Below, one piece after another: positions 9,675-51,308 of a DNA stretch of 57,874 nucleotides. The position numbers and the translations under genes are program-made. The notes under the pieces were generated by a model. It was given only the letters and a program-made list of their open reading frames with translations, had not been told where the DNA came from and ran no database searches. How positions within the stretch are numbered: the stretch's first letter is position 1; each line of letters begins with the position of its first letter. Source of the stretch: Bacteroidaceae bacterium (GTDB lineage: Bacteria; Bacteroidota; Bacteroidia; Bacteroidales; Bacteroidaceae); assembly GCA_017933995.1 (NCBI GenBank), contig JAGBKI010000048.1, positions 1-57,874 of the forward strand, written 5' to 3'.

Positions 9675-9792
9675 GGCAGCCATCCTCCCGAAACGGCATC
9701 GGGCCGCACCGCTCTCCCCCGCAATTTGTACCCGTCGCCCTCAAAATCGCACGCAAAGCCCCGCAATTCGTGTCTGCGCCCACCAAAATCTG

Positions 9793-9876
9793 CAAATTAA
9801 GGCTTAGTTTGTACAAACTAAGGTTAAGTTTCGCCAAACTAAGGCTTAATTTGTAAAAACTTAGGCTTAATTTGCA
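9793..9876. repeat. 21-bp tandem array, four units
   Basis: Four consecutive 21-bp units (9793-9813, 9814-9834, 9835-9855, 9856-9876) share the core CAAACTAAGGCTTAATTTG with small changes, followed by a partial unit. Each unit is itself nearly palindromic (CAAACTAA-GGC-TTAGTTTG), so the array can fold in many registers. The same family recurs at 51210-51293. The remainder of the 9612-10104 gap holds the terminator and a promoter, and no gene that I recognise. Confidence 0.85.
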
Positions 9877-9984
9877 GAATTAACCCACGACAGGAACGAT
9901 TTAAGCCGCCGAGGGGGAGAATTACGCCGCTGGAAGCGAAAAAACGACCGCGCGCGGGAAACTTTTTCACCCGCGCCAAGGAAG

Positions 9985-14472: not shown

Positions 14473-14478
14473 TTATAA

Positions 14479-14581
14479 GGTTTAAGAGGTTTAAGGGGTT
14501 TAAGAGGTTTAATCCATCCGGCTACGGTGCAGCCACGATGCACAGCCTTAAACCTCTTAAACTTCTTAAACCTCTTAAACT
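14479..14581. repeat. 9-bp tandem repeats forming a 34-bp inverted repeat
   Basis: The left arm (14479-14512) is four units of GGTTTAAGA or a close variant. The right arm (14548-14581) is the complementary set, with three mismatches to a perfect reverse complement. The 35-base loop is unrelated. The whole would fold into a long hairpin between dnaN and coaBC and could end dnaN transcription; another TCTTAAACC copy lies at 14595-14603. Confidence 0.8.
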
Positions 14582-14609
14582 TTCCCTCCTTTCCTCTTAA
14601 ACCTCTTCC

Positions 14610-20481: not shown

Positions 20482-22662
20482 TCACACCCTCGTGACGCTC
20501 TTCACGCCTTTCACCGTGCCGAGTTTCTTGACGAGGGCGCCGAGTTCGTCGGTGTTTTCGACGAGGATGGTGAGGATGCCGGAGAAGAGGCCGTCGTGAC
20601 TGTCAAGGCGTATGCTGCGCAGCATCACGCGGGCCTCGCGCGAGATGATGCTCGTGAGGTTGTTGACGATGCCGATGTCGTCCTTGCCGACTACGCGCAG
20701 GGTGATGGGGTATGTGCCGCCGCCTTTGCCGGCCCAGCGGGCGCGGACGACGCGGTAGCCGTAGCGCTCGCGCATGGACGGGGCGTTGGGGCAGCCGGTG
20801 CGGTGGATAGTGATGCCGCCGCTGACGGTGACAAAGCCGAACACGTCGTCGCCGTAGACGGGGTTGCAGCACTTGGCCATGCGGAACTCCACGCCTTTCA
20901 GGTTGCGGTCGATGACTAACACGTCGTCGCTGCCCTTGTGCGCCGCGCCGGCCTGTTGCTGCTGGTCGAGGCTGTATTCCTCGGCACTGGTGCGGCGGAC
21001 GGGCTGGGCGGCGGTGTCGGCCTGCAGCAGGTTGGAGTAGGCATCGATGATGGCGTTCACGTCGAGACGGCCGTTAGCGATGTCGCTGAAAAACTCGTTG
21101 GCCTCCTTGTATCCCTGCTTGCGCACGAGGCGGTTCCACGCCGTCTCCTCCCAGGCCAGTTTGCGGTTCTTCAGACGACGCTCAAGTTGCTCGCGCGCTA
21201 ACACGGCCTGTCGCGCACCAAGTTCCTTGACGGCTGCGCGTATCTTGCTGCGGGCGTGGCTGCTGACGGCTATCTGCTCCCACTCGGCCTTGGGCTCCTG
21301 GCGGCTGCTGGTGATGACCTCTACGCGCTCGCCGCTCTTGAGTTCGCGGCGCAGGGAGACGTTGCGCCCGTCGATTTTGGCGCCCGTGCAGTGGTTGCCC
21401 ACGGCGCTGTGGATGTGGTAGGCGAAGTCGAGCACGGTGGCGTGGGCGGGCAGGCTGTAGAGGTCGCCCTTGGGCGTGAAGACGTAGGTGCGGTCTTCCT
21501 GCAACTTCTCGGCCAAGCTGTCGGCCAGGCGGCTGTCGTCGCCCTGCTCCAACGCGCCGCGTATGTCGGCCAGCCAGTGCTCGATGTTGGCGCCGCTGCT
21601 CTTCACGCCCTTGTAGCGCCAGTGGGCGGCGAGGCCGTGCTCGGCAATCTCGTCCATGCGCTCGGAGCGTATCTGCACCTCCACCCATTTGTCCTCGGGG
21701 CCGCGCACGGTGATGTGCAGGCTCTCGTAGCCGTTGCTTTTGGGCACGGTGAGCCAGTCGCGAAGGCGTTTGAGGTTGCTCTCGTGGTCGTTAGTGATGA
21801 TGCTGAACACCTTCCAGCACTGCGCTTTCTCCTGCTTCTGCGGCGCGTCGAGGATGATGCGTATGGCGAAGAGGTCGTAGACGCCCTCGAACTCGCACCG
21901 CTGCTTCTTCATCTTCTGCCAGATGGAGTGTATGCTCTTGGTGCGCGCCTTCATGTGGTAGCGCAGTCCCTCGGCGTCAAGCTGCGCCTTGATGGGGGCG
22001 GTGAAGCATTCGATGTAGGCGTCGCGCGCCTGCTTCGTGGCGTTGAGCTTCTCCTTGATGTGGTAGTAGGCGTCGTGCTCCAGGTATTTCAGCGAGAGGT
22101 CTTCGAGTTCGCTCTTGAGGCGGTAGAGACCTAATTTGTGGGCTAACGGGGCGTAGACGTGGGCGGCTTCGAGCGAGAAGCGGCACACGGCCTCGGCCTG
22201 CGGGTTGTCCTTGATCTGCCGCATCACGTAGACGTGGTGGGCAACGAGCAGCAGCACGACGCGCACGTCGCCCGCCTGCGAGACGAGCAGGTTGCGGAAG
22301 TTGTCGGTCTGCAGCGCCTGCGTACTGGTGTCGAGGGCGGCCACGCGGCGGAAGCCCGCTAAGAAGTCGGCCACGGAGCGTCCGAAGCGGCGCGCCACGA
22401 CGGTCTCTATCTCGTCGGTGGGAGCCACGGTGTTGAGTACGAAAGCCGTGGCTACGTCGCCCGTCACGCCGATTTCGGCGCGCGCCAGGCGTATGCTCTC
22501 CAAGGCCGTGAGCAGTTTGTCGAGGCCGAATACGTCGGCGGTCGCCGCGCCTTTGTCAATACACTGGTCAACATAGCGCACGACTTCGCGCGCCGCCTTG
22601 CGCTGCTGGGCGAATGCAGGGTCGCGAACGAGGGAGAGGAGGGGGAGAATGGTGCGGGGCAT
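20482..22662 (-). CDS. relA: RelA/SpoT-family (p)ppGpp synthetase with degenerate hydrolase domain
   Basis: A 726-residue long Rel protein from the ATG at 22662; an upstream ATG would add ten residues. The HD hydrolase domain is present by shape but its catalytic LLHDxxED segment reads VLNTVAPTDE, so hydrolysis is probably lost. The synthetase domain is intact (ARTKSIHSIWQKMKK, VYDLFAIRIIL, KSNGYESLHITV). TGS (VFTPKGDLYSLPAHATVLDFAYHIHS), a zinc-finger-like CCNPVYGDDVFGF segment and a C-terminal ACT domain follow. It most likely makes (p)ppGpp during the stringent response, with hydrolysis left to another Rel protein. Its 5' end and leader have a second, truncated copy at 23627-23713. Confidence 0.9.
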   Translation of the reverse strand: MPRTILPLLSLVRDPAFAQQRKAAREVVRYVDQCIDKGAATADVFGLDKLLTALESIRLARAEIGVTGDVATAFVLNTVAPTDEIETVVARRFGRSVADFLAGFRRVAALDTSTQALQTDNFRNLLVSQAGDVRVVLLLVAHHVYVMRQIKDNPQAEAVCRFSLEAAHVYAPLAHKLGLYRLKSELEDLSLKYLEHDAYYHIKEKLNATKQARDAYIECFTAPIKAQLDAEGLRYHMKARTKSIHSIWQKMKKQRCEFEGVYDLFAIRIILDAPQKQEKAQCWKVFSIITNDHESNLKRLRDWLTVPKSNGYESLHITVRGPEDKWVEVQIRSERMDEIAEHGLAAHWRYKGVKSSGANIEHWLADIRGALEQGDDSRLADSLAEKLQEDRTYVFTPKGDLYSLPAHATVLDFAYHIHSAVGNHCTGAKIDGRNVSLRRELKSGERVEVITSSRQEPKAEWEQIAVSSHARSKIRAAVKELGARQAVLAREQLERRLKNRKLAWEETAWNRLVRKQGYKEANEFFSDIANGRLDVNAIIDAYSNLLQADTAAQPVRRTSAEEYSLDQQQQAGAAHKGSDDVLVIDRNLKGVEFRMAKCCNPVYGDDVFGFVTVSGGITIHRTGCPNAPSMRERYGYRVVRARWAGKGGGTYPITLRVVGKDDIGIVNNLTSIISREARVMLRSIRLDSHDGLFSGILTILVENTDELGALVKKLGTVKGVKSVTRV

Positions 22663-22694
22663 ATATAATATGGTGTGTGGGCAGGAGCGCAAAT

Positions 22695-23561
22695 CTATTT
22701 TTCCTTGTCTTCGTTGTCCTCTGTTGTATTAGAAACTTGCAGTAAATAGTCGTTGGCACGGTTGGAAGAAATAACGCTATGTCCGAGTTCGCGTTCCAGT
22801 TCAAGACGGGCAGTCTTTGCCACATGGCCGCCCTTGCGGGCAACCTCGCCGCTCTCACGCATTCCTTTCGGGCTGTGTTCGCGGGATAGATCGGTAGTGG
22901 CGGCTTCAGCCAGCGTATTGAGTGCCAGTTCGGTGAGCGTCATATTGTCGCGCAAACTTTCTTTCTTCAAGCCTTTGTGTTGTTTGTACTGCTTTACGGT
23001 TTTGCCGCTCCACTCCCGCGTGATAATGTTTGTCAATATGGCAAAGTCACGACCCTCTTGTACGCTGCTGCGCTTCCACTCGTCTGTAAGGTATTTGCGC
23101 ACCTCTATACTTTTGAGCCGCTGGTTTATCCAGTTGTCGGAATAGCCCAGCCGCTTGTAGTCGGCCATTGCTTGCTCTATGGAAAGTTCCGGGTCTTGCA
23201 ACTGGTCGATGCGCGTCTGGGCCACTTCTGCCATCCACACTTTGAACGGCTCTGCCTTGGGTGAGGGGATGGACTGGATGAGACGGAACATCTGGCTCAT
23301 CGTCGCCACGTCCGTCAGTCGCATCTTGCCGTCGGCAGCACGAAGTTTCAACTGGTGACAATTTGTCACCGTTTCATTTCCTTCTTCTCTGAGGCGTTGT
23401 TTGAGCTTATTCCAATACTTGCGGGCTGTCAACGGGTCTTTGCTGTCCGTAAGTGCTTCAACCACGTCTACGACAGAAAAGTACCACTCCTCCTGTTCCG
23501 CGTCCCAAGCGGTGCGGATTTTCCTGTCTTCGTAGAGTTGCAGGGCTTGTTTGGTATCCAT
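22695..23561 (-). CDS. BRO-N/antirepressor-like DNA-binding protein
   Basis: A 288-residue protein of the BRO-N (phage antirepressor/DinD-like) group. The N-terminal domain (KIRTAWDAEQEEWYFSVVDVV, then EALTDSKDPLTARKYWNKLKQR) is the BRO-N fold. The C-terminal part (GHVAKTARLELERELGHSVISSNRANDYL) resembles the end of DinD-type proteins. Such genes occur in prophages and islands, usually as regulators of unknown target. It starts about 20 bp after a copied fragment of the methyltransferase 3' end and stops just before relA. Codon usage is more AT-leaning than relA. No phage structural genes are nearby, so it looks like an island gene. Confidence 0.78.
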   Translation of the reverse strand: MDTKQALQLYEDRKIRTAWDAEQEEWYFSVVDVVEALTDSKDPLTARKYWNKLKQRLREEGNETVTNCHQLKLRAADGKMRLTDVATMSQMFRLIQSIPSPKAEPFKVWMAEVAQTRIDQLQDPELSIEQAMADYKRLGYSDNWINQRLKSIEVRKYLTDEWKRSSVQEGRDFAILTNIITREWSGKTVKQYKQHKGLKKESLRDNMTLTELALNTLAEAATTDLSREHSPKGMRESGEVARKGGHVAKTARLELERELGHSVISSNRANDYLLQVSNTTEDNEDKEK

Positions 23562-23582
23562 TGTTTTCTTTGTTATTTATCG

Positions 23583-23614
23583 TTTCAAGAAGCCGTATTG
23601 GTAGACTTTGGGGG
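23583..23614 (-). repeat. Duplicated 3' tail of the methyltransferase gene
   Basis: These 32 bp match 26925-26956 with one mismatch. There the sequence encodes the last residues of the methyltransferase (PKVYQYGFLK). Here the same frame ends in an Arg codon and a stop. It is immediately preceded, on the minus strand, by the duplicated relA 5' end and followed by the BRO gene start. Confidence 0.85.
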
Positions 23615-23626
23615 GGGTAACAGTAC

Positions 23627-23713
23627 GCCTTGCGCTGCGAGGCGAATGCGGGGGCGCGAACGAGGGAAAGGAGGGGGAGAATGGTGCGGGGCATATATAT
23701 AATATGGTGTGTA
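23627..23713 (-). pseudogene. Truncated duplicate of the relA 5' end
   Basis: About 85 bp match 22595-22679 with only a handful of differences, including the leader (ACCATATTATAT) and the first 23 or so codons of relA (MPRTILPLLSLVR, then AFASQRKA). The copy breaks off into the methyltransferase-tail copy, so it is a dead fragment. Its promoter-proximal part may still initiate translation. Confidence 0.85.
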
Positions 23714-23736
23714 GGTTTTTGGGTTCTTTTACGAGG

Positions 23737-23761
23737 AGTTGTCAAAGATTATTTGACAACT
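23737..23761. repeat. 25-bp palindromic element, copy 1
   Basis: A near-palindrome with 10-bp arms (AGTTGTCAAA / TTTGACAACT) and a 5-base centre. Its exact reverse complement occurs inside rhuM at 24706-24730. It lies between the rhuM stop and the relA 5' fragment. Confidence 0.85.
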
Positions 23762-23871
23762 GGCCTTGCGGCTAAACCTTTTGCTTTGAGGTAGTTAGAC
23801 GTAGTGAATGGGCGCGGTGCGTGAAGGTGGCAAGTTTTTCTTTTAGTTTGTTAGCGTGTTTTGGGCGTGAC

Positions 23872-23903
23872 AGACGCTGGAAGCGTCTCCCTTTCTGTAA
23901 CCG
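23872..23903. repeat. AGACGCT-AAGCGTCT palindromic repeat with conserved tail
   Basis: The motif AGACGCTGGAAGCGTCT is followed by CCCTTTCTGTAACC. The same motif plus tail forms both arms of the inverted repeat at 49967-50208. It lies just downstream of the rhuM stop. The rest of the 23562-23913 gap consists of the duplicated fragments and the 25-bp palindrome. Confidence 0.7.
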
Positions 23904-23913
23904 TTTGGGATAG

Positions 23914-24921
23914 TTAACGTTTTTGCTTGATTTCCTTTTCAAGGTTCTCCAACAGGCGGAGGTCTTCGCGGTCGGCTTCGGCGGCTTCGTATCGGCGGCG
24001 GCGCGCGTCAAATTCGCGGTAGATGCGCTTGGCCTGCTGCTCCATCTCTTGGTTCGTCACACAGCCGCGTCCTTGCAGCACGTCGCGCCCGTTGAACGCG
24101 AGCAGGCTGTCCACGTTCTGCCGCCAGTAGTCGAGCGTGAGGTCGCGGCGGTCGCGCACGCGCAACTCGGCGGTTTCAAGGAAAATGGTCACGAGGCGGT
24201 TCAGCGTGTCTATCTCTTCGGCGTGCAGGTAGTTCTTGGCTATCACCACGTCGCCCGTGCGCACGATGCTGCCTTTCCACGTCGTCAGCCCCATATTGGG
24301 CTTCGTGGCGTCGGCGCGTGCGCATACCAGTTCGGCAGCGGTCTGGTGCGTAACGGCGTAGAGCAGTTTGTTCTGTGTCTCGGCAAAGAACATCTGCGTG
24401 GCTTTGTCGTCGGGCTGGTAGTCGGAACTGAGTGCAAAGAGGTCGCGCAGTTTCTGATAGAAACGCTTTTCCGAGGCACGGATATCGCGGATGCGCGCCA
24501 GCATCTCGTCGAAGTAGTCGGGGCGGCCGTCGGGGTTCTTCAGTCGCTCGTCGTCCATCGTGAAGCCTTTTACGAGGTACTCGGAGAGGTGGCGCGTGGC
24601 CCACTGCCGGAACTGCGTGCCGCGCAGACCACGCACACGATAGCCCACGGCGATAATCATCTCCAAGGCATAGAACGTGACGTTGTATTGCTTGCCGTCG
24701 GCGGCAGTTGTCAAATAATCTTTGACAACTGACTCAAAGGATAACTCTTTCTCTTTGAGGATGTTAAGGATGTGATAGCTCACGCTTTGCTTGGAGGTGG
24801 CAAAAAGTTCGGCAAGTTGTTGTTGGTTGAGCCACACTTTGCCGTCGCGTGCCATAAGGGCGACGCTCGCTTTGCCGTCGGGCGAGCGGTAAATGATGAG
24901 GTTTTGTCCGGTGGTATTCAT
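23914..24921 (-). CDS. RhuM-family protein
   Basis: A 335-residue member of the RhuM (virulence protein RhuM) family, named from a Salmonella pathogenicity island gene; biochemical role unknown. Family traits are an N-terminal winged-helix-like segment (VWLNQQQLAELFATSKQSVSYH), YALEMIIAVGYRVRG, FRQWATRHLSEYLVKGF and a C-terminal FNGRDVLQGRGCVTNQEME with a coiled tail. The N-terminal resemblance to BRO/KilA-N and death-on-curing-linked regulators suggests DNA binding. The gene starts 60 bp after hipT on the same strand with no clear terminator between, so it may be read from the hip promoter. A 25-bp palindrome lies in its coding DNA at 24706-24730. Confidence 0.85.
   Translation of the reverse strand: MNTTGQNLIIYRSPDGKASVALMARDGKVWLNQQQLAELFATSKQSVSYHILNILKEKELSFESVVKDYLTTAADGKQYNVTFYALEMIIAVGYRVRGLRGTQFRQWATRHLSEYLVKGFTMDDERLKNPDGRPDYFDEMLARIRDIRASEKRFYQKLRDLFALSSDYQPDDKATQMFFAETQNKLLYAVTHQTAAELVCARADATKPNMGLTTWKGSIVRTGDVVIAKNYLHAEEIDTLNRLVTIFLETAELRVRDRRDLTLDYWRQNVDSLLAFNGRDVLQGRGCVTNQEMEQQAKRIYREFDARRRRYEAAEADREDLRLLENLEKEIKQKR
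24706..24730. repeat. 25-bp palindromic element, copy 2 (inside rhuM)
   Basis: Exact reverse complement of 23737-23761, here inside the rhuM reading frame where it encodes SVVKDYLTT. Because similar residues occur in RhuM homologues, this copy may be the source of the downstream one. Confidence 0.85.
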
Positions 24922-24981
24922 CGTGGGACAGTCTGATTGTTGTTTATATTAGCATTGGGGAGTGATAGAACCTACCTTTAC

Positions 24982-25983
24982 TCAAAGCAAAGTCGTGCGG
25001 CGATAATTGTATGAATGCCAATAGTTTCGTTTTAGTGAATCGGACAAGAAGGAGCGTTCTGTCAGTTCCTTTGCCAGCGGGTGTTCTGCGGAAAAGAAAT
25101 CCAATTCTCGCTTCACCAATCTTGCGGACAGACCTATTCTTCTTCCAAACTCCTCAAAGTCCTCTCTGCAAACGGCTCGGGTGTCGGAGAGTTTCATACC
25201 TTCCCGAAACAATCCTTTGTCAAGGGCGAAGATGCGTGGCACGCTCAAGTGCAGACTGGTATTGATGAGGTCGTAGGCAGGTGCGAGGTGGTATTCCCCA
25301 TCGCCACGGTTGATGAGCGAGAAGTTCTTCAGGTGGGCATCGTCGTTGAGCGTGAGATAATTGAAAACAATCATTCGGAAGAACTTCAGGATTTCAACGG
25401 GGGCTGCCGTTGCATATTTGCGGATGATGCCTGCACATTCCTCGTAGCTGAGATTGCTATATTTGTAGTCGCTGCCCCCATCGGCATTGGTCAAACCAGC
25501 AAGTGAGGCAAAATCCTCCTGGCTATATTTCTGTCCGCCTGGCCCGACATCGAAGCGTCGGCACAGGTAGGCCGCTTCACCGTCACGGAAGAAACACAGT
25601 GCGTTGGCTGCCGTTTCTATGCGGTAGACCTGTGAGGCCAACTGCATGGTCAAATGCTCATTGGCGGGACAGTACTTGCGGTCGAACAAAGCGTATGAAG
25701 TCGGTGCCGGTTTCAGAATGTGCGTTCCACGTTCCCCCTCTTCGGGTTTTACCAACTTCCCCGCTTCACCCACAACCATACTCGCCTTTGGTTGCACGCC
25801 GGATAAGGAGATACGACCTATGTTCTTCAAATAAGTGCCATTGTCGCTCCTTTCGTTATTCGGGCTGTCAAAGACGAGAATATGCGAAACCTCCTTTCCG
25901 TCGAACAGTTGCTTTCGGGCTGCTGGCGAATAAGTATCAAAACCTTCCTGCAAGGTGCAGGGACACACATGGAGTTCTATCAT
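24982..25983 (-). CDS. hipT: HipT-like serine/threonine kinase toxin (HipA core)
   Basis: A 333-residue HipA-fold kinase lacking the usual N-terminal subdomain, which is encoded separately by the gene just upstream. It keeps the Gly/Ser loop ISLSGVQPK with serines at residues 59 and 61, equivalent to the SxS autophosphorylation site of HipT. It also has the catalytic loop LTLNDDAHLKNFS (NxDxHxKN, Asp215) and the metal-binding PAYDLINT (Asp238). HipA and HipT phosphorylate aminoacyl-tRNA synthetases (GltX or TrpS) and so trigger the stringent response and dormancy; the target here is not known. The start lies two bases after the hipS stop. Base composition is more AT-rich than the flanking core genes, consistent with acquisition. 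Confidence 0.85.
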   Translation of the reverse strand: MIELHVCPCTLQEGFDTYSPAARKQLFDGKEVSHILVFDSPNNERSDNGTYLKNIGRISLSGVQPKASMVVGEAGKLVKPEEGERGTHILKPAPTSYALFDRKYCPANEHLTMQLASQVYRIETAANALCFFRDGEAAYLCRRFDVGPGGQKYSQEDFASLAGLTNADGGSDYKYSNLSYEECAGIIRKYATAAPVEILKFFRMIVFNYLTLNDDAHLKNFSLINRGDGEYHLAPAYDLINTSLHLSVPRIFALDKGLFREGMKLSDTRAVCREDFEEFGRRIGLSARLVKRELDFFSAEHPLAKELTERSFLSDSLKRNYWHSYNYRRTTLL

Positions 25984-25985
25984 AC

Positions 25986-26294
25986 TTACACGGGTTTTAT
26001 GGTAACGGCTCCGATAGTATCGTGTTGTGCGGTGGCCAGCATAATGCCGAAATCGTCGTTTTCGTCAATGTGGTGCAACATAGATTGCACCTGCCGGTTT
26101 GCTCCTTCAGACAGCATATTGAAGAAATAGGGAAAGAGATGGTTGGAGCGATAGACGCTCTTCGTTACAGGCATCGCCAGGCAGACGGGGGCTCCCCTGT
26201 AGCCGTCACGATAGGTAAAAACATATTCTCGTGCATCCGTCTCTGTCAGGAGGCCTGCTTCCACATCGTGGACATACACTTTACACTTTCTCAT
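25986..26294 (-). CDS. hipS: HipS-like protein (free-standing HipA N-terminal domain)
   Basis: A 102-residue protein equal to the N-subdomain-1 of HipA. It contains GAPVCLAMPVTKSVYRS and HLFPYFFNMLSEGANRQV, the pattern that precedes the kinase core in full-length HipA. In the E. coli O127 HipBST system the matching small protein HipS, not HipB, neutralises the HipT kinase. The same role is likely here but unproven. It overlaps the hipB end by 14 bases and ends two bases before hipT, a tight operon order B-S-T. Confidence 0.8.
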   Translation of the reverse strand: MRKCKVYVHDVEAGLLTETDAREYVFTYRDGYRGAPVCLAMPVTKSVYRSNHLFPYFFNMLSEGANRQVQSMLHHIDENDDFGIMLATAQHDTIGAVTIKPV

Positions 26295-26502
26295 ACTCCA
26301 GCTGCTTGAGGTTGATGTCTATCTGTAGTCCTAACGTGTCAATAATCGTCAGCAGCGTGGAGAGCTGTGGATTCCCCTCTCCTCGTTCAATGGCAACGAT
26401 GGTGTTTACGGCCACGCTCGCCAAATCAGCTAACGTCTGTTGGTTGATGCCGAGTTTTTTCCGTCTTTCCCTGACTGTCCGTCCTATTTCTTGCTGCGTC
26501 AT
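26281..26502 (-). CDS. hipB: HipB-like helix-turn-helix regulator
   Basis: A 73-residue XRE-family protein with a helix-turn-helix (RKKLGINQQTLADLASVAVN, TIVAIERGEGNPQLSTLLTI) and a short C-terminal tail (LGLQIDINLKQLE). It fits HipB, the DNA-binding autorepressor of hip operons. The ATG at 26502 gives the normal HipB start; a TTG at 26532 would add ten residues. A dyad TCGCA-N6-TGCGA at 26567-26582 upstream is a possible operator. A minus-strand TATTTTTG at 26530-26537 is a possible -7 box close to the start. Confidence 0.82.
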   Translation of the reverse strand: MTQQEIGRTVRERRKKLGINQQTLADLASVAVNTIVAIERGEGNPQLSTLLTIIDTLGLQIDINLKQLEYEKV

Positions 26503-26548
26503 AATCTCAATGTGTTGCGATTTCTGCGGCAAAAATAAACATCTCCCT

Positions 26549-26677
26549 TCAAAAAGAGGCTGAATTTCGCAATAAAATGCGATTTCGGTTCTGTCCTTCG
26601 CTATTATCTCGCTTCAACTGCCGAATCGTTGCCTTGAGGTCTTCCAGCTGGCGGAGGTCTTCGCGGTCAGTATCCAT
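26549..26677 (-). pseudogene. Remnant of a second rhuM 3' end
   Basis: A short open frame of 42 codons begins MDTDREDLRQLEDLKATI. Its DNA shares GACCGCGAAGACCTCCGCC with the C-terminal coding part of rhuM (ADREDLRLLENLEKEI at about 23940-23970). Nothing else of a rhuM gene remains next to it. It is best read as the leftover of an earlier rhuM copy, now lying in the hipB promoter region. Confidence 0.55.
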
Positions 26678-26687
26678 AGTGTATGTC

Positions 26688-26914
26688 AACCCGTTGGCGG
26701 AATTACCAGAATTTGTTCAATTTTGATATAAATTTTGATGAATTTCTTCGACGAGCGAAGCGAGTAGAACTCGGTTACTGCGCGAAGCGCATAAAGAGTA
26801 GTCGCCAACGGCGAGTTATCGAGTTCAACTCGCTTCGCTCGTCGAAGAAATTTTTCAAAATTAAATTCAAAATTATTCAAAATCCGCACTATTGGTCTAA
26901 TTCCGCCAACGCGT
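26688..26914. mobile_element. MITE-like inverted-repeat element
   Basis: An AT-rich element of about 227 bp. Its ends, AAC(C)GTTGGCGGAATTA and the reverse complement TAATTCCGCCAACG(C)GTT, are inverted. An inner pair (GAATTTCTTCGACGAGCG at 26739-26756 and its complement at about 26835-26852) continues the symmetry, so most of the element can fold on itself. ATGTC flanks it on both sides (26683-26687 and 26916-26920), like a 5-bp target-site duplication. It encodes no transposase; chance reading frames cross it on both strands. The right flank includes the methyltransferase stop codon. Confidence 0.6.
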
Positions 26915-26918
26915 TATG

Positions 26919-29564
26919 TCATTCTTTCAGGAAGCCGTATTGGTAGACTTTGGGGGCGAGGCGGGTTTGGGCGAGTTCCTTCAGGGCGGCGCGGAGGGTG
27001 CGGATGAGGGCGGTGTAGCAGGCGTCGGGGCTGTCGGGGTTCATCTGCTGCTTGCCGCTCTTGGTGGTCTTGGTGCCTTGGAAGTGGAGGCGGATGTCGT
27101 AGAAGGAGGCGTCGGGGTGCTGGCGCGCGGCGGGCTGGGCGTGGTAGTAGCGCCACAGGGCGAGGCCGGCGGCGTAGACGGCGCGGGCTTCTTCGCTCAT
27201 GCAGTCCAACAACGAAAGCCGAGGTACGTCGGGTTTGTCCGTCGCCCCTTCGGGGCTTGCTTCAGTGCTTGCGTTTACAGGGGTTCCATTCGCTTCGCTC
27301 ATTCCACCCCTGCCTGTGGTCTGTCGTGCTTTCAGCACTTCGTCTTCGGCGGACGCAGAAGAGAAGAGGTCGGGCGAAGCGGTGCTGGCACTCTGTACGT
27401 CACGCAGGGGCTGGCGGAGGAAGTCGCTCATAAAGTGGCTTTGGAACACTTCCTGCGCGCCCACTTCCTCTTCGGTGAAGGGGAGCCAGTGGTTCTCGCC
27501 GCTTTCCGCGCTGATGCGGTTCTGGCCGTGGAAGAGGGTGTAGACAAGGCAGTCGGCCTGGAAACCGTAGTCCGTCTGCCAACCGTCGCTCGGATAAAGG
27601 AACTGGTCGCGGTCGTTGAGCCAGGTGGCGGGGTTGCACAAGCGCGCGGAGAAGTAGACCGCCATGGGGATGAGGTTCTCAGGCGTGATGGCGTACTTGC
27701 AGGCGTTCTTGGGATTGCCGCTCTTGAGGAGGCTCTGCTCGCTTTGTATGCAGAGGTATTGGTTATTCTGAAAGTCGGGGCCGTTGTTGCCCGTATAGCC
27801 GATAACGTTCTTGGGCGTGCGGCTGACGTAGCGCGTAATCCACTTGGTGATGGCTGCGTCTGGAGTCGTGCTGCTGATGGTTTTGTTGCCAAGGAACGTG
27901 CCGTCGGCGTCGTAAACATCGGCGGTTATGCTTTGGAACACCTCCTGCTGGTCGGTGCGCCAGATGAAGAAGCCGATGGGGAACTGCCCCTTCACGTTGT
28001 CGAAAGTGGCTGCCGGGACGACGAACATCCGACAAAGCTTCGCTTTGAACCAATTTCGGAAATACGCGAAGGCGCTGCCTTGCAGAATTTTCAAAGTTGA
28101 AAATTCTGCAAGGCAGCACGATGGTATTTCGCTGTAAATGCGGGCGAAGAACTGGACGTAGAGTTCGCGTATGCCAAGTCCGAAGTCTTTGCGGTAGGTC
28201 TCCCAAACGGAAGAGGTGTTGCTTACGCCCGTCTTGTTTTCGCCGCCGCCTGTCACTTGCGTGGCCGTGCCCGCCTCCGCATACGGCGGGTTAATATATA
28301 TAATAAGGTGTCGGCGGCGTTCGGGGTCGTTGATGATGTCTTGCAGCGACTGGGGCAGGCGGGTGAAGGGGTCGTTGAGGAAGTCGAACTGGAAGACGTG
28401 GCTCTCCAACAGGTTGGCGCCGCCGCTGCCGGGGGTGCGCGCGGCGGCGTTCATGGCGGCGATGCGCTGGTGGATGGCCTGCACGTCGGCCTTGTCGAGC
28501 GTGGAGGCGTAGACGTGGTATTTGTTGGTGAGGCCGGCCAGCAGGTTGCCCGTGCCGGCGCAGCAGTCCCAAATGTAGTATTCGTCCTGCCAGTTTTCGC
28601 CGAGTTCGGCGGCGATGTACTGCTGCGAGAGTTCCACCCAGCGGGCGGGGGTGAAGAAGGAGCCTTTGCGCTCGCGCACGTCCTGCGGCACGAGGAGGTC
28701 GCGGCGGTTCACGATGTCGTCCCAGTATTCGCGGCGCGGGGGGCGGGCGTAGCGGTTCCAGAAGAGGCGGTGGGCCTGCTGGCGGTCGTTGAAGCGCACG
28801 CGGGTGAGTTCTTCGAGGCCCAGGTCGTTGACGCGGCGGTCGAGCAGGTAGTGGTCGTCCTGGAGGAGCACGAAGAGTTTCTCGCCGAGCGTCTGGTTGT
28901 CCTTGGCGAGGATGTCGGCGAGGTAGAAGTCGGCGTCGATGATGCCTGCCTGCTTGGCGAGGTCCCAGTCGATGTTGATGGTGGGCTTGACGGCCTGCAG
29001 CCACTTGAGGTAGATGTGGGTGAAGTTGTTGCGGTTGATGCGTATGTGGCTGCCGGCCTTGCTGCGCGTGGCGAAGTTGCGGCGGATGAAGTGGAAGAGT
29101 TCGGGGGCGTCGGTGTCGTAGCGGTAGATTTCGAGGCCGCTGTGGAGGCTGTCGTGCAGCAGGCCGAGGAGCTGGCGGAACTCCTTGGTGTGGTGGTCGC
29201 TGGGGGGCACGTTCCAGTTGAAGTCGTTCTGCCGCAGTACGGGGAGCACGGTGCTGTAGGGCAGGAAGGCTATCTTCTCGGCGTCGAAGGCGCCGAGGTA
29301 GGCGGGGGGCAGGTGGCGGTCCTGCGGGCGTTCCTTGCCGAGGGTGAGGATGAGCTGTATGACGGACTCGAAGATGTCGTGGCTTGTGCCGCGCTTGGCT
29401 TCGGCCCAGAGGAGGGGTTCGGGCTCGTTGAGGCCGAGGGGGTCGGCGGGCAGGCAGACGCAGAAGTCCACGCGGCCCACTATCTGCGTGGTGTCGAAGC
29501 GCGGGAACAGGTCGCGCGCCACCTCGTTCTTCAGTTGCTCTTCAAGGATGGTGGTGGGGTACAT
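26919..29564 (-). CDS. Single-chain nuclease-DNA methyltransferase (type IIG-like restriction enzyme)
   Basis: An 881-residue protein. An N-terminal segment has the order Asp33 (RVDFCV) then Glu55-x-Lys57 (LLWAEAKRG), which fits a PD-(D/E)XK nuclease core. The middle carries the AdoMet motif WDCCAGTGNLL near residue 335 and the catalytic NPPY (IYINPPYAEAG) near residue 425, typical of N6-adenine methyltransferases. The C-terminal third probably holds specificity, and ends KVYQYGFLKE. One chain with both activities and no partner subunit suggests a type IIG enzyme; a solitary methyltransferase is the alternative. A Ser/Thr/Ala-rich insert near residues 720-790 is encoded by hairpin-rich DNA, and a 44-bp palindrome lies within the coding DNA at 28074-28117. 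Confidence 0.78.
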   Translation of the reverse strand: MYPTTILEEQLKNEVARDLFPRFDTTQIVGRVDFCVCLPADPLGLNEPEPLLWAEAKRGTSHDIFESVIQLILTLGKERPQDRHLPPAYLGAFDAEKIAFLPYSTVLPVLRQNDFNWNVPPSDHHTKEFRQLLGLLHDSLHSGLEIYRYDTDAPELFHFIRRNFATRSKAGSHIRINRNNFTHIYLKWLQAVKPTINIDWDLAKQAGIIDADFYLADILAKDNQTLGEKLFVLLQDDHYLLDRRVNDLGLEELTRVRFNDRQQAHRLFWNRYARPPRREYWDDIVNRRDLLVPQDVRERKGSFFTPARWVELSQQYIAAELGENWQDEYYIWDCCAGTGNLLAGLTNKYHVYASTLDKADVQAIHQRIAAMNAAARTPGSGGANLLESHVFQFDFLNDPFTRLPQSLQDIINDPERRRHLIIYINPPYAEAGTATQVTGGGENKTGVSNTSSVWETYRKDFGLGIRELYVQFFARIYSEIPSCCLAEFSTLKILQGSAFAYFRNWFKAKLCRMFVVPAATFDNVKGQFPIGFFIWRTDQQEVFQSITADVYDADGTFLGNKTISSTTPDAAITKWITRYVSRTPKNVIGYTGNNGPDFQNNQYLCIQSEQSLLKSGNPKNACKYAITPENLIPMAVYFSARLCNPATWLNDRDQFLYPSDGWQTDYGFQADCLVYTLFHGQNRISAESGENHWLPFTEEEVGAQEVFQSHFMSDFLRQPLRDVQSASTASPDLFSSASAEDEVLKARQTTGRGGMSEANGTPVNASTEASPEGATDKPDVPRLSLLDCMSEEARAVYAAGLALWRYYHAQPAARQHPDASFYDIRLHFQGTKTTKSGKQQMNPDSPDACYTALIRTLRAALKELAQTRLAPKVYQYGFLKE
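27188..27410. repeat. Hairpin-rich in-frame insert in the methyltransferase gene
   Basis: Several short stem-loops are packed here: GCCCC-TTC-GGGGC, GTGC-TTTCA-GCAC, and AGGGGT...ACCCCT around an ATTCGCTTCGCTCAT core. The encoded stretch is low-complexity and lies between two well-ordered parts of the protein, so it is probably a variable linker. Confidence 0.5.
28074..28117. repeat. 44-bp palindrome inside the methyltransferase gene
   Basis: Two perfect 21-bp arms (28074-28094 and 28097-28117) separated by two bases. They encode CLAEFSTLKILQGS, which is a conserved-looking part of the methyltransferase domain. A smaller stem, CAAAGC-TTC-GCTTTG, lies just to its left near 28033-28047. Confidence 0.85.
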
Positions 29565-30014: not shown

Positions 30015-30019
30015 TCACA
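29949..30019. repeat. Pair of related hairpins GACGCACTKTGTC at the nudC 3' end
   Basis: Two dyads, 29949-29965 (GGGAC-AAAGTGC-GTCCC) and 30001-30019 (TGTGAC-ACAGTGC-GTCACA), share 12 of 13 core bases. The second overlaps the nudC stop codon. On the minus strand the first is followed by CACTTTTGAAAAAAATT. They may form a tandem terminator for the pgm-nudC transcript, or a repeated protein-binding site. Confidence 0.5.
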
Positions 30020-30779
30020 TTTCCGCCTCACAGCGCTCTTGCAGCCACATGTCAATCAGTTTGCGGGCGAGGCTGGGGGGTGAGGGGAGCGTGGGGAGGG
30101 TGGCGGGTGTGAACCAGCCGCCTTTGCGGAGCTCTTCGTCTTGGAGGCGGAGGGTGCCGGCGGCGTAGCGGGCGCGGAAGCCCACCATCAGTTGGATGGG
30201 GAAGGGCCAGGGTTGGGAGGCGACGTAGCGCGGCGGGGAGATTTCGAGGCCGGTCTCCTCGCGCACCTCGCGGCGCACGCAGTCCTCCAAACTCTCGCCC
30301 GTCTCGACGAACCCGGCCACGAGGCCGTAGAAGTCGTGGCGGAACGAGCGGCTCTGCACCAACAGCACCTCGTCGCCGCGCTCCACAAGCACCAGTACGG
30401 CGGTCTGCAACTGCGGCCACTGCTCTTCGCCACAGGCGGGGCAGCGCTTGGAGATGTCGGTCTGCCGCACGAGGCGCGTGCCGCAGACGGGGCAGTGGCG
30501 GGTGTGGGCGTCCCAGTGGAGGAGTTCGGCGGCTTTCGTGGCAAGCGCGTAAAGGGCGGGCGGCAGGACGGCGTGGGCGGTGCGCAAGTCCCACAACTGC
30601 GCGCCGGGCAGCGCGGCATCCACCACGCGGGCGGCGCGACACGGTGTGCCGTCGGGGGCGGGGAGGTCAAACGCGAGGCCGTCCGCCACGGGCGTGAAAG
30701 AAGCCGCCGCCAATGGCAGCCACGTGCCATCGGCGGCGGGAGTGAGAAATAGCTGTGTGTCGTGAAAGAGGAACAGCAT
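30015..30779 (-). CDS. nudC: NADH pyrophosphatase / RNA deNADding Nudix hydrolase
   Basis: A 254-residue NudC-type enzyme, which cleaves NAD(H) to NMN(H) and AMP and removes NAD caps from RNA in E. coli. The zinc ribbon uses Cys96, Cys99, Cys113 and Cys116 (HCPVCG, RCPACG). The Nudix box runs from Gly156 to Ile180 (GFVETGESLEDCVRREVREE). SQPWPFP at 188-194 is the signature that separates NADH diphosphatases from other Nudix proteins. The start at 30779 is seven bases after the phosphoglucomutase stop, so the two genes form an operon; an upstream open frame overlapping pgm is not used. Confidence 0.92.
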   Translation of the reverse strand: MLFLFHDTQLFLTPAADGTWLPLAAASFTPVADGLAFDLPAPDGTPCRAARVVDAALPGAQLWDLRTAHAVLPPALYALATKAAELLHWDAHTRHCPVCGTRLVRQTDISKRCPACGEEQWPQLQTAVLVLVERGDEVLLVQSRSFRHDFYGLVAGFVETGESLEDCVRREVREETGLEISPPRYVASQPWPFPIQLMVGFRARYAAGTLRLQDEELRKGGWFTPATLPTLPSPPSLARKLIDMWLQERCEAEM

Positions 30780-30786
30780 AGGCTTT

Positions 30787-32538
30787 TTAGATTCCCAGCG
30801 ACGCCTTGACGGCCTCGACCTTCTGCTGGGCCTGGGCGCGGGCGGCATCGTAGTCGGCGGCGGTGGGCATGGGAGCCTTGACCTCGATGTAGAACTTGAT
30901 CTTCGGCTCGGTGCCGCTGGGGCGCACGCTGACCTTGGTGCCGTCGGCGGTGTACCACTGCAACACGTTGCTCGTGGCGGGCATGTCAAGGGGCTGCACG
31001 TTGCCCTCGCCGTCGGTGGCGGTGAGCGCCTCGTAGTCCTTGGCGCAAACCACCTTGGAACCGGCGATTTCCTTGGGCGGCTCCTGGCGGAAACGCTCCA
31101 TCATGGCCTTGATTTCGTCGGCACCGCTCTTGCCGGGCTTCACGACGTTCACGGTGCTTTCGAGCGAGAAGCCGTATTCCACGTAGATCTGGCGCAGGAG
31201 GTCGAAGAGCGTCTTGCCCTGGTCTTTCGCCCACGCTGCAATCTCGCAGATGAGGCAGATGGAGGCGGGGGCGTCCTTGTCGCGCACCTTGTCGTAGGGC
31301 AGGAAGCCGAAGCTCTCCTCGCCGCCACCGATGTACTTCTGCTTGCCCTCGCTGATGGCGATTTCGCGGGCGATCCACTTGAAGCCGGTGTAGCAGTCGC
31401 GCAGTTCCACGCCGTTCTTCTTGGCAATCTCGGCGATGAGTTCGGTGGTGACGATGGTCTTCACGAGGAAGTCGGTGGGTTTGAGCTGGCCGAGGGCGAT
31501 CTTGTTCTTGATGATGTAGTAGGAGAACATCAGGCAGGTCTGGTTGCCGTTGATGATGACCCACTCGCCCTTGTCGTCGCGGCATACGATGGCCAGGCGG
31601 TCGGCGTCGGGGTCGGTGGCCACGACGAGGTCAGCGCCGAGCTTGGTGCCGAGTTTCATGCCGAGCGTCATGGCTTCGGCGTTCTCGGGGTTGGGGCTGA
31701 CGACGGTGGGGAAGTTGCCGTCGACGACCATCTGCTCGGGCACGACGTTGATGTTCTGGAAGCCCCAGCTGCGGAGGCAAAGCGGCACAATAACCCTGCC
31801 CGTGCCGTGCATAGCGCTGTAGACGATGTTGAGGTCTTTCTGACGCTCGATGACGTCGGCGTCGATGCGTGCCTCGCGCACGGCCATCATGTAGTCGTAG
31901 TCCATCTCGCCGCCGATGATCTTGATGAGGTCGGCATCGGCCTCGAACTTCACGTCGGCGATTTTCACCTTGTTCACCTCGTCGATGATGCCCGTGTCGT
32001 GGGGCGTGAGCACCTGTGCGCCGTCGCTCCAGTAGGCTTTGTAGCCGTTGTATTCCTTGGGGTTGTGGGAGGCGGTGACGTTCACGCCTGCCACCGCGCC
32101 GAGCTGGCGGATGGCGAAACTGATTTCGGGCGTGGGGCGCAGTCCCTCGAAGAGGAAGGCGCGGATGCCGTTGGCGGAGAAGATGGCGGCCACGGTCTCG
32201 GCGAAGAGGCGCGAGTTGTTGCGGCAGTCGTGGCCCACAACGACGCTCAGTTCGCCTTTGGCCTTGCCGGGGAAGGCTTTGTGGATGTAGTTGGCGAAGC
32301 CCTGCGTGGCGGTGCCCACGATGTAGCGGTTCATGCGGTTGGTGCCGGGGCCCATGATGCCGCGCAGACCGCCGGTGCCGAACTCCAGGGTTTTGTAGAA
32401 GCTGTCGATGAGTTCGGTCTTGTCGGGGTTGTCGAGCATGGCGCGCACGGCCTGGCGCGTCTCCTCGTCGTAGAGCGGCGACTCGGCCCATTCGCGGGCG
32501 GCGAGCTCGCACTGCTTGATGAGTTCTTGGTTTTCCAT
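30787..32538 (-). CDS. Phosphoglucomutase/phosphomannomutase-type phosphohexomutase
   Basis: A 583-residue alpha-D-phosphohexomutase that interconverts sugar-1- and sugar-6-phosphates. The phosphoserine loop TASHNPKEYNGYK is near residue 155, the magnesium loop DPDADRLAIV near 309 and the sugar-binding GEESFGF near 404. The C-terminal phosphate-binding segment is VRPSGTEPKIKFY. Length fits the PgcA group acting on glucose, possibly with mannose activity. The ATG at 32538 (MENQELIKQ) is chosen; the frame is open upstream without plausible coding. A minus-strand TACCTTTG box lies about 40 bases upstream. Confidence 0.93.
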   Translation of the reverse strand: MENQELIKQCELAAREWAESPLYDEETRQAVRAMLDNPDKTELIDSFYKTLEFGTGGLRGIMGPGTNRMNRYIVGTATQGFANYIHKAFPGKAKGELSVVVGHDCRNNSRLFAETVAAIFSANGIRAFLFEGLRPTPEISFAIRQLGAVAGVNVTASHNPKEYNGYKAYWSDGAQVLTPHDTGIIDEVNKVKIADVKFEADADLIKIIGGEMDYDYMMAVREARIDADVIERQKDLNIVYSAMHGTGRVIVPLCLRSWGFQNINVVPEQMVVDGNFPTVVSPNPENAEAMTLGMKLGTKLGADLVVATDPDADRLAIVCRDDKGEWVIINGNQTCLMFSYYIIKNKIALGQLKPTDFLVKTIVTTELIAEIAKKNGVELRDCYTGFKWIAREIAISEGKQKYIGGGEESFGFLPYDKVRDKDAPASICLICEIAAWAKDQGKTLFDLLRQIYVEYGFSLESTVNVVKPGKSGADEIKAMMERFRQEPPKEIAGSKVVCAKDYEALTATDGEGNVQPLDMPATSNVLQWYTADGTKVSVRPSGTEPKIKFYIEVKAPMPTAADYDAARAQAQQKVEAVKASLGI

Positions 32539-32719: not shown

Positions 32720-32807
32720 ACAAAAGTACTTCCTTGAAAGTACAAAAGTATTTCCTTGAAAGTACAAAAGTACTTTGAGGAAAGTACAAAAGTACTTTCA
32801 GGGAAGT
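32720..32807. repeat. 22-bp tandem array, four units
   Basis: Four consecutive 22-bp units (32720-32741, 32742-32763, 32764-32785, 32786-32807) share ACAAAAGTACTTTC at the left and GAAAGT at the right, followed by a partial fifth. The core is a dyad (AAAAGTACTTT). The array lies between the divergent ends of the cotH terminator and the pgm promoter; no gene is seen in 32583-32882. Confidence 0.85.
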
Positions 32808-32882
32808 ACTTTTTAACAATGGTCAAAAGCGGGAGGCGCAAGGACTGGTTATAGAACCAAGAGCCGGCAAGGATGGCAAAAA

Positions 32883-40336: not shown

Positions 40337-40408
40337 GTTAAAAGGTAAAAGCTGAGTTATGTTTGTAGGCGAGCAGCAACAAACATAACTCAGCTTTTAC
40401 CTTTTAAC
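40337..40408. terminator. Long perfect hairpin after the FHA gene
   Basis: Two perfect 29-bp arms (40337-40365 and 40380-40408) with a 14-base loop. The arms are AT-rich, including TTTTACCTTTTAAC at the 3' side, and lie 30 bases after the FHA gene stop. A terminator is the simplest reading, though the arm length is unusual. Confidence 0.65.
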
Positions 40409-49966: not shown

Positions 49967-50208
49967 AGACGCTGAAAGCGTCTCCCCCTCTGTAACCGCA
50001 GGTACGCAAAGTGGAACGGAGCGCACCTGCGGCAAGGGAACGCAGGGGGACGGACGCTGAAAGCGTCCCCCACGACGGGAAAACGGACACTGATACGCTT
50101 GTGGGGCACGCCTTCAGCGTGCGTTCATTAGATGACAGCCCGCTGTAGGTGCGCTCCGTTCCACTTCGCGTACCTACAGTTACAGAAAGGGAGACGCTTT
50201 CAGCGTCT
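49967..50208. repeat. Long inverted repeat with GACGCT-AAGCGTC ends
   Basis: Left arm 49967-50031 and right arm 50145-50208 are reverse complements at roughly 90% identity. Each starts with AGACGCTGAAAGCGTCT and a CTCTGTAAC-type tail and ends with AAGTGGAACGGAGCGCACCT. A further GGACGCTGAAAGCGTCC copy lies near 50051-50067. No transposase is present. The element fills most of the 49776-50271 gap between DUF2442 and ksgA, and I see no gene there. Confidence 0.75.
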
Positions 50209-50271
50209 GAACTTCCACCCGAACCTTTCCCGTCTTGCCGCATAACCTTTTTCACACACACCATCCCGCCT

Positions 50272-51190: not shown

Positions 51191-51195
51191 CGGTT

Positions 51196-51308
51196 GGCCT
51201 TCAATTCTCCAAATTAAGGCTTAAATTGTAAAAACTTAGGCTTAATTTCGCCAAACTTAGGCTTAGTTTGTAGAAATTAAGCCTTAATTTGGAGAATTGA
51301 AAGCCAAC
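51196..51308. repeat. 21-bp tandem array inside a long inverted repeat
   Basis: Four 21-bp units (51210-51230, 51231-51251, 51252-51272, 51273-51293) of the same family as 9793-9876. The outer flanks TCAATTCTCC and GGAGAATTGA extend the symmetry. Arms 51201-51223 and 51278-51300 are perfectly complementary, and pairing continues outward with one mismatch to about 51193 and 51308. The array lies between the convergent rsmA and panB genes. Confidence 0.85.

What the first reader, a model, noticed from the sequence alone, without database searches (positions are those of the whole stretch)
22595..26960. Two cargoes of one hotspot joined in tandem between the methyltransferase gene and relA
The minus-strand order is: intact methyltransferase 3' end, hipBST, rhuM, copy of the relA 5' end (23627-23713), copy of the methyltransferase 3' tail (23583-23614), BRO gene, intact relA. 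Both cargo blocks are thus bounded by a methyltransferase tail and a relA head. The simplest history is that strains carried either hipBST-rhuM or the BRO gene at the same site, and homologous recombination or tandem duplication placed both in one chromosome. The site may be a general cargo hotspot.
Basis: partly seen in the sequence, partly recalled or inferred. Interest (0 to 1): 0.75.

Follow-up and report, generated by a model that had tools for sequence, protein, structure and literature searches.

The report
Two defence-gene cargoes fused at relA
In a gut-bacterium genome, two sets of probable phage-defence genes lie end to end in front of relA, separated by a scrap of relA joined to a scrap of a neighbouring DNA-modification gene, which is best read as one rough recombination event that combined two versions of the same chromosomal site.

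Summary
Observation confirmed. Minus-strand order: MTase, hipBST, rhuM, relA-head copy (23626-23711, about 90% identical), 11 bp of filler, MTase-tail copy (23577-23614, with stop codon), BRO, intact relA. The fused fragment is single-copy in its genome. Best explanation: two alleles of one site (MTase-hipBST-rhuM-relA and MTase-BRO-relA) were combined through a single illegitimate joint, by one-sided homologous recombination (HFIR) or single crossover plus deletion; HFIR is what was proposed for Vibrio T6SS immunity arrays. Single-cargo strains could not be sought: no second genome of the species is held. A general hotspot is not supported: among 48 relA loci of related species, nudix lies directly upstream of relA in 23, and in none is it farther upstream with an insert between. 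Refinements: the MTase is itself accessory and multi-copy; a MITE with a 7-bp target duplication abuts its 3' end; rhuM-like remnants lie on both sides of hipBST-rhuM. RhuM and BRO match PADLOC candidates PDC-S05 and PDC-S13. An assembly artefact is unlikely but not excluded. A well-preserved new example of a known kind of event; modest interest.

The parts
20485..22662 (-). intact relA (RelA/SpoT, 726 aa)
   Evidence: Pfam RelA_SpoT, HD_4, TGS, ACT_4; a match in 57 of 58 genus genomes, of which G035 and G050 have only a 31-33% paralogue
22695..23561 (-). BRO-family gene (288 aa), cargo of block 2
   Evidence: Pfam Bro-N 1.1e-11; PADLOC PDC-S13 3.6e-127
23577..23614 (-). copy of the MTase 3' end, 38 nt including its own stop codon, 15 nt upstream of the BRO start codon
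   Evidence: 31 of 32, 34 of 38 with the stop
23615..23625 (-). 11-bp filler at the illegitimate joint between relA copy and MTase copy
   Evidence: assigned to neither parent gene
23626..23711 (-). copy of the relA 5' end: leader plus first 23 codons (ATG at 23692-23694), 5 substitutions in 69 coding nt, 2-bp indel in the TA-rich leader
23737..23797 (-). rhuM-like fragment downstream of rhuM, with a 26-bp palindromic word that is also a perfect inverted copy of 24705-24730
   Evidence: 74% over 61 nt direct, 100% over 26 nt inverted; perfect matches to the palindrome only at these two places in the own genome, while at up to 3 mismatches the reversed control gives the same count, 3 and 3
23914..24921 (-). 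rhuM (335 aa), cargo of block 1
   Evidence: Pfam Virulence_RhuM 3.3e-108; PADLOC PDC-S05 2.6e-145
24982..25983 (-). hipT (HipA C-terminal kinase toxin), cargo of block 1
   Evidence: Pfam HipA_C 4.8e-40
25986..26294 (-). hipS (separate HipA N-terminal domain)
   Evidence: Pfam Couple_hipA 4.8e-17; TIGR03071 above its cut-off
26281..26532 (-). hipB (HTH regulator/antitoxin)
   Evidence: Pfam HTH_3; TIGR03070 just below its cut-off
26600..26677 (-). remnant of a rhuM-like 3' end (TDREDLRQLEDLK...; matched core 26637-26668), preceded by the 8 nt ATGGATAC that also begin the BRO gene
   Evidence: 28 of 32 nt to the rhuM tail; three-frame translation
26689..26914 (.). foldback MITE with TIR CGTTGGCGGAATTA and 7-bp target duplication TATGTCA (26682-26688 and 26915-26921, the latter overlapping the MTase stop codon)
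   Evidence: 11 further full-length copies and a 12th in two pieces in the own genome; TIR and flank words
26919..29564 (-). intact type IIG-like DNA methyltransferase gene (881 aa; N-terminal E-x-K nuclease-like motif, NPPY methylase motif)
   Evidence: family named by motif
30015..30989 (-). nudix (NADH pyrophosphatase-like), the probable ancestral upstream neighbour of relA
   Evidence: Pfam; directly upstream of relA in 23 of 48 relatives examined

Best explanation
The site once existed as two alleles, MTase-hipBST-rhuM-relA and MTase-BRO-relA. Incoming DNA carrying one allele recombined homologously with the other at one end (inside the MTase, or inside relA) and was joined illegitimately at the other end. 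This left the first 23 codons of one relA stitched through 11 bp of filler to the last codons of the other MTase. The result carries both cargoes with one intact MTase and one intact relA. A single-crossover integration followed by a deletion would give the same structure. Shown: the structure, the single unnatural joint, the absence of dispersed copies, and the uninterrupted nudix-relA neighbourhood in many relatives. Inferred: the two single-cargo alleles, the mechanism, and which allele was the recipient. The cargo probably acts in phage defence (PDC-S05 RhuM, PDC-S13 BRO) and as a toxin-antitoxin module (HipBST), so keeping both could be useful; that too is inferred.
For: Both copies are true gene ends: the relA start with its leader, and the MTase end with its stop codon. 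They diverge from the intact copies by similar amounts, 5 of 69 and 4 of 38 nt, as expected of two diverged alleles. The MTase copy's last 18 nt differ from those of relative G015 at 2 places, the intact copy's at 4 (sequences, counted by eye). No other sequence is shared between the two blocks at E up to 1e-4. MTase directly followed by BRO exists in G026 at another locus. The fused fragment occurs once in the genome. In relatives nudix lies directly upstream of relA in 23 of 48 loci. The same kind of product, older downstream genes and an effector 3' end kept behind a new module, ascribed tentatively to HFIR, is described for Vibrio T6SS arrays (PMC5361080, passages).
Against: No strain with a single cargo was available, and neither block was seen at this site in the 48 relA loci examined. 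The two nearest species, G015 and G037, have other genes upstream of relA, so they do not show the state before insertion. MTase-BRO adjacency is rare: 1 of 5 other genus genomes with a full or split MTase (G026), 0 of 80 MTase loci in GTDB and 0 of 36 further BRO loci. The joint has filler rather than microhomology, which fits several end-joining routes. The D14A change in the relA copy could also be decay after duplication.
Confidence: 0.58

Rival explanations
1. Tandem duplication of one interval (MTase tail to relA head) that already held all the cargo, followed by loss of BRO from one copy and of hipBST-rhuM from the other.
For: The joint relA head to MTase tail is exactly a tandem-duplication joint. 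Deletion scars exist: a rhuM-like 3' remnant before hipB, possibly fused to the first 8 nt of a BRO gene, and BRO-rhuM neighbours exist in G062 and G282 (2 of 36 BRO loci).
Against: Apart from the 8-nt word ATGGATAC (expected by chance about 0.014 times in two 30-bp stretches, my own estimate), I saw no cargo sequence shared between the two blocks. It needs two complementary deletions. The ends of the copies differ by 7-10% from the intact genes.
Confidence: 0.17
2. Assembly artefact: two strain variants in the sample were joined into one contig.
For: The genome is a fragmented assembly (66 contigs, 84% complete), and contigs break inside MTase paralogues (C12, C24, C44).
Against: The script found no exact word of 9 nt or more shared, on one strand, by the intact relA-start and MTase-end regions, and the joint holds filler, so no k-mer overlap is apparent that could create the path. 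The repeats that could confuse an assembler share exact words of only 31 and 26 nt.
Confidence: 0.12
3. A mobile cassette with an MTase-tail end and a relA-head end moves as a circle and integrates by recombination in the short end sequences.
For: The circle junction of such a cassette would be precisely relA head to MTase tail.
Against: None of the genes identified in the interval is a recombinase. No cassette was seen elsewhere: 0 of 80 MTase loci and none of 48 relA loci. The end homology is short.
Confidence: 0.06
4. Two unrelated sequential insertions, with the relA and MTase scraps captured by chance during transposition.
For: The region carries mobile DNA: a MITE with a target duplication.
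Against: Two captured gene ends, both from the genes that flank the interval and both in the right orientation, are not expected by chance; none of the genes identified in the interval is a transposase.
Confidence: 0.07

Closest known systems
Homology-facilitated illegitimate recombination (HFIR; Streptococcus, Acinetobacter, Pseudomonas, E. coli conjugation; PMC3240628, abstract and passages)
   Same: One homologous end, one illegitimate end, foreign DNA added
   Different: Here inferred from one genome of an uncultured gut bacterium; whether it takes up DNA is unknown to me; the illegitimate joint holds 11 bp of filler
Orphan immunity-gene arrays of Vibrio cholerae T6SS clusters (PMC5361080, passages)
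   Same: A new module displaces the resident gene, a 3' end of it can remain, and the older downstream gene is kept behind the new module
   Different: Cargo is candidate defence and toxin-antitoxin genes behind a DNA methyltransferase; one round only; a relA head is also captured
Chromosomal defence islands (for example E. coli, PMC10121019, start of abstract in the listing)
   Same: Different defence genes cluster at one chromosomal place
   Different: No sign that relatives use this site (48 relA loci examined)
HipBST toxin-antitoxin modules (PMC6581861, PMC10627512, starts of abstracts in the listing)
   Same: Gene order hipB-hipS-hipT, HipS is the separate N-terminal domain
   Different: Function not tested; it is linked here to a rhuM gene

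Membership tests
HFIR product | One illegitimate joint between two gene fragments that belong to the flanking genes | tested here: met
   relA codon 23 joined by 11 bp of filler to the MTase end
HFIR product | A homologous recombination tract on the other side (mosaic MTase or relA) | not testable with these tools
   needs the parental strains; nearest relA 81% identical
HFIR product | Parental single-cargo alleles exist | not testable with these tools
   no other genome of the species is held
General integration hotspot | Different cargo at the same interval in related genomes | tested here: not met
   48 of 54 other orthologous relA loci examined: nudix directly upstream in 23, pgm in 2, neither in 23 (several of these cut by contig ends); none with nudix and an insert between. 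Six further orthologs were not fetched.
Dispersed repeat / mobile element ends | The two fragments recur at unrelated loci | tested here: not met
   no other copy of the fused fragment in the own genome; 20-nt junction word absent from viral contigs
HipBST | Three genes hipB-hipS-hipT with a split HipA | tested here: met
HipBST | Kinase toxin neutralised by HipS/HipB | not tested
   needs experiment
PADLOC PDC-S05 / PDC-S13 candidate defence genes | Strong profile match over the whole protein | tested here: met
   RhuM 2.6e-145 over residues 3-334, BRO 3.6e-127 over 1-286
Type IIG restriction-modification enzyme | Nuclease and N6-methylase domains in one chain | tested here: inconclusive

The most novel reading that the evidence does not exclude
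The cargo travels as a cassette with a DNA-methyltransferase tail at one end and a relA head at the other, so that it can dock by short homology wherever this methyltransferase lies upstream of relA. The docking also places the relA leader (a motif found at 19 sites in this genome) in front of the BRO gene, putting a phage-defence gene under the control of the (p)ppGpp synthetase's promoter.
Probability: 0.05. Interest if true: 0.6.

Novelty: new member of a known kind. Interest (0 to 1): 0.36.

Why it matters
It is a well-preserved scar of how a small defence locus can grow by addition instead of replacement in an uncultured Bacteroidales gut lineage, with the joint still readable to the base. 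If strains with single cargoes are found, it would make the additive mechanism directly testable in this group. I do not know of a description there, but I made no search aimed at that question.

Tried and rejected
Hotspot model: relA upstream regions of 48 of the 54 other genus genomes with a relA ortholog were examined (fetched; counted). 23 have nudix directly upstream (22 within about 220 bp of the extrapolated relA start, one at 370), 2 have pgm directly upstream, 23 have neither (at least four of these end within 700 bp at a contig edge). One (G010) has a shortened rhuM one gene away from relA. In none was nudix found with an insert between it and relA. Not fetched: G001, G002, G031, G032, G033, G036; without an ortholog: G021, G035, G050.

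MTase-BRO as a standard pair: it looked attractive from G026 but was not found in the 80 GTDB MTase loci kept of 345 (many of these hold less than 6 kb on a side) or in 36 further BRO loci (only 36 of the loci matched were examined, with about 1.5 kb on each side). BRO-rhuM as a standard pair: 2 of 36 BRO loci; of 29 rhuM loci, 1 has a full BRO neighbour (the same G062 locus) and 1 a weak Bro-N match. hipBST-rhuM as a pair: in the 4 best other hip loci of the genus, rhuM is absent from the 13-18 kb read or about 8-14 kb away.

Phage carriage: the viral-contig scans gave 1 BRO relative, 0 HipT and 3 MTase relatives; rhuM was not scanned. Nothing there explains the locus. Solved structures for the MTase gave only implausible Rab GTPase matches. 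Invertible rhuM: the 26-bp perfect inverted pair (23737-23762 and 24705-24730) could in principle flip 942 bp; not tested further.

Full report
Observation. The finding is real. One search recovers an 86-bp direct repeat (22594-22679 and 23626-23711) and a 32-bp one (26925-26956 and 23583-23614). Gapped, the first is 91% identical. In the own genome the E-values are 1.6e-29 and 1.3e-8, and the fused 138-bp query has no second full match among 66 contigs. The relA copy is the leader plus 23 codons with 5 substitutions and no frameshift; the MTase copy runs through a stop codon (38 nt, 34 identical). Between them lie 11 bp that I cannot assign to either gene. As background, a self-comparison of the window at E up to 1e-4 gives 18 repeat pairs, nearly all of them self-complementary elements. 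The order on the minus strand is therefore: MTase, MITE, rhuM-like remnant, hipBST, rhuM, rhuM-like fragment, relA head copy, filler, MTase tail copy, BRO, relA.

Gene identities. Pfam gives RelA/SpoT, Bro-N, RhuM, HipA_C, Couple_hipA and HTH_3. PADLOC matches RhuM to PDC-S05 (2.6e-145) and BRO to PDC-S13 (3.6e-127); that PDC stands for phage-defence candidate is recalled. The MTase matches nothing at E 0.001 in Pfam, NCBIfam or PADLOC, yet 345 relatives were found in GTDB contigs, of which the best 80 were kept. In an alignment of 48, E55 and K57, DCxxGTGN and INPP are invariant, and 25 of 48 members match Pfam N6_Mtase at E up to 1 (best 0.0015; the window protein 0.04, below the cut-off). 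I take it as a type IIG-like enzyme, by motif; the motif names are recalled.

Where the interval came from. Of 58 genus genomes (own included), 57 have a relA match; 54 others have an ortholog by my reading of identities, and I examined 48 of these. In 23, nudix lies directly upstream of relA; in 2, pgm does; in 23 neither was found, several of these at contig edges. The two nearest species, G015 and G037, belong to the last group and have other genes there, which limits the inference. In the window pgm-nudix is followed by MTase plus cargo and then relA, so everything from the MTase to BRO looks like an acquired stretch. The MTase occurs in 8 of 58 genus genomes, of which 2 hits are weak and partial. 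It is multi-copy in the own genome: tails at the ends of contigs C44 and C24, a head at the end of C12. The C24 and C44 tails are followed at once by other genes; the C24 neighbour, a glucanotransferase-like gene (named by eye, not from a search), also follows the MTase tail in relative G015. The genus is probably Alloprevotella-like: contig lengths of G042, G038 and G015 equal those of records titled uncultured Alloprevotella sp., uncultured Prevotellaceae bacterium and Bacteroidaceae bacterium; this is an inference.

Hotspot test. No examined relative shows nudix and relA with an insert between (0 of 48, of which 23 have nudix next to relA and could show it most directly). Of 80 MTase loci in GTDB, 0 have BRO, rhuM or hip genes in the DNA held around them. 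BRO genes are common in the family (180 of 399 genomes). The nine in the genus that I read with wider flanks lie apart from this MTase and from hip genes; in two of them (L133, L137) a neighbouring gene looks by eye like another DNA methyltransferase, and L133 has a broken rhuM about 8 kb away. So the site is not a general hotspot on this evidence, and the cargo genes seem to be individually mobile.

What joined the blocks. The only unnatural joint is relA codon 23 to MTase tail. MTase tail to BRO is a plausible natural joint: in G026 the same two genes lie about 107 bp apart at another place, though this adjacency is rare elsewhere (0 of 80 and 0 of 36). rhuM to relA head is the other edge that I take as natural. 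The two scraps differ from the intact genes by 7% and 10%, which fits two diverged alleles. This is the product expected of one-sided homologous recombination with an illegitimate end (HFIR), or of single-crossover integration plus deletion. The closest described product is the Vibrio T6SS immunity array (PMC5361080, passages read), where a displaced effector's 3' end and kept older immunity genes are explained in the same way; HFIR is described there as rare, and as 3x10^-10 per recipient in E. coli conjugation (PMC3240628 abstract and passages). Direction cannot be settled: the donor may be the hipBST-rhuM allele anchored in the MTase, or the BRO allele anchored in relA.

Later and older scars. 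A MITE (26689-26914) with TIR CGTTGGCGGAATTA abuts the MTase end with the 7-bp duplication TATGTCA. The own genome has 11 more full-length copies and a 12th in two pieces; of these 12, five show flank words of 6-10 bp at about matching offsets (L276, L277, L281, L283, L284), the others shorter, shifted or none. Before its insertion the MTase stop would have been followed closely by ATGGATAC and a rhuM-like 3' end; ATGGATAC also starts the BRO gene. This might be a BRO-head/rhuM-tail deletion scar, but an 8-nt match is weak (about 0.014 expected by chance, my own estimate).

Artefact. The assembly is fragmented and reads are not available. Against a chimera: the script found no exact word of 9 nt or more shared on one strand by the intact relA-start and MTase-end regions, and the repeats share words of only 31 and 26 nt. 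I leave 12%.

Verdict. Observation confirmed; the two-allele reading is the best of the available ones (0.58); the general hotspot is not supported. Known kind of event, new place.

Noticed in passing
window 26689-26914: Foldback MITE family: 11 other full-length copies and one in two pieces in the genome (roughly 155-204 bp against about 226 here), TIR CGTTGGCGGAATTA, flank duplications of 6-10 bp in five of 12; no autonomous partner was sought.
   Followed up: partly
window 23737-23762 and 24705-24730: A perfect 26-bp inverted pair, itself palindromic, one arm inside rhuM (VVKDYLTT) and one behind it; it could allow a 942-bp inversion or be a hairpin or operator. Perfect matches occur only here in the genome.
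   Followed up: partly
window 22658-22678, 23692-23712 and 17 other places in the genome: Recurrent leader motif ACACNCCRTATTATATATA, in several cases just before a start codon (by eye); 19 matches with up to 3 mismatches against 0 for the reversed control. Looks like a promoter-type element of this genome.
   Followed up: partly
window 26919-29564: Widespread type IIG-like nuclease-methylase family (345 relatives found in GTDB contigs) with no Pfam, NCBIfam or PADLOC match at E 0.001 for the window protein; at least three other assemblies hold two copies.
   Followed up: partly
window about 27190-27340: The MTase carries a stretch of about 40 residues that the four relatives in alignment A1 lack; part of it matches the translation of DNA on contig C65, so it looks like an in-frame repeat insertion.
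   Followed up: no
window 23871-23904 and 49967-50209: 34-bp word behind rhuM shared with a 242-bp self-complementary element; further self-complementary stretches at 9786-9881, 14477-14583, 32722-32813, 40337-40408 and 51193-51308.
   Followed up: no
L323/L362 (G062) and L311/L363 (G282): BRO gene directly followed by a rhuM gene in two other genomes of the family; in G282 rhuM seems to lack its middle.
   Followed up: partly
L133 (G057) and L137 (G009): BRO genes beside genes that look by eye like other DNA methyltransferases.
   Followed up: no
L266 (G010): Shortened rhuM ORF (215 aa) one gene upstream of relA.
   Followed up: no
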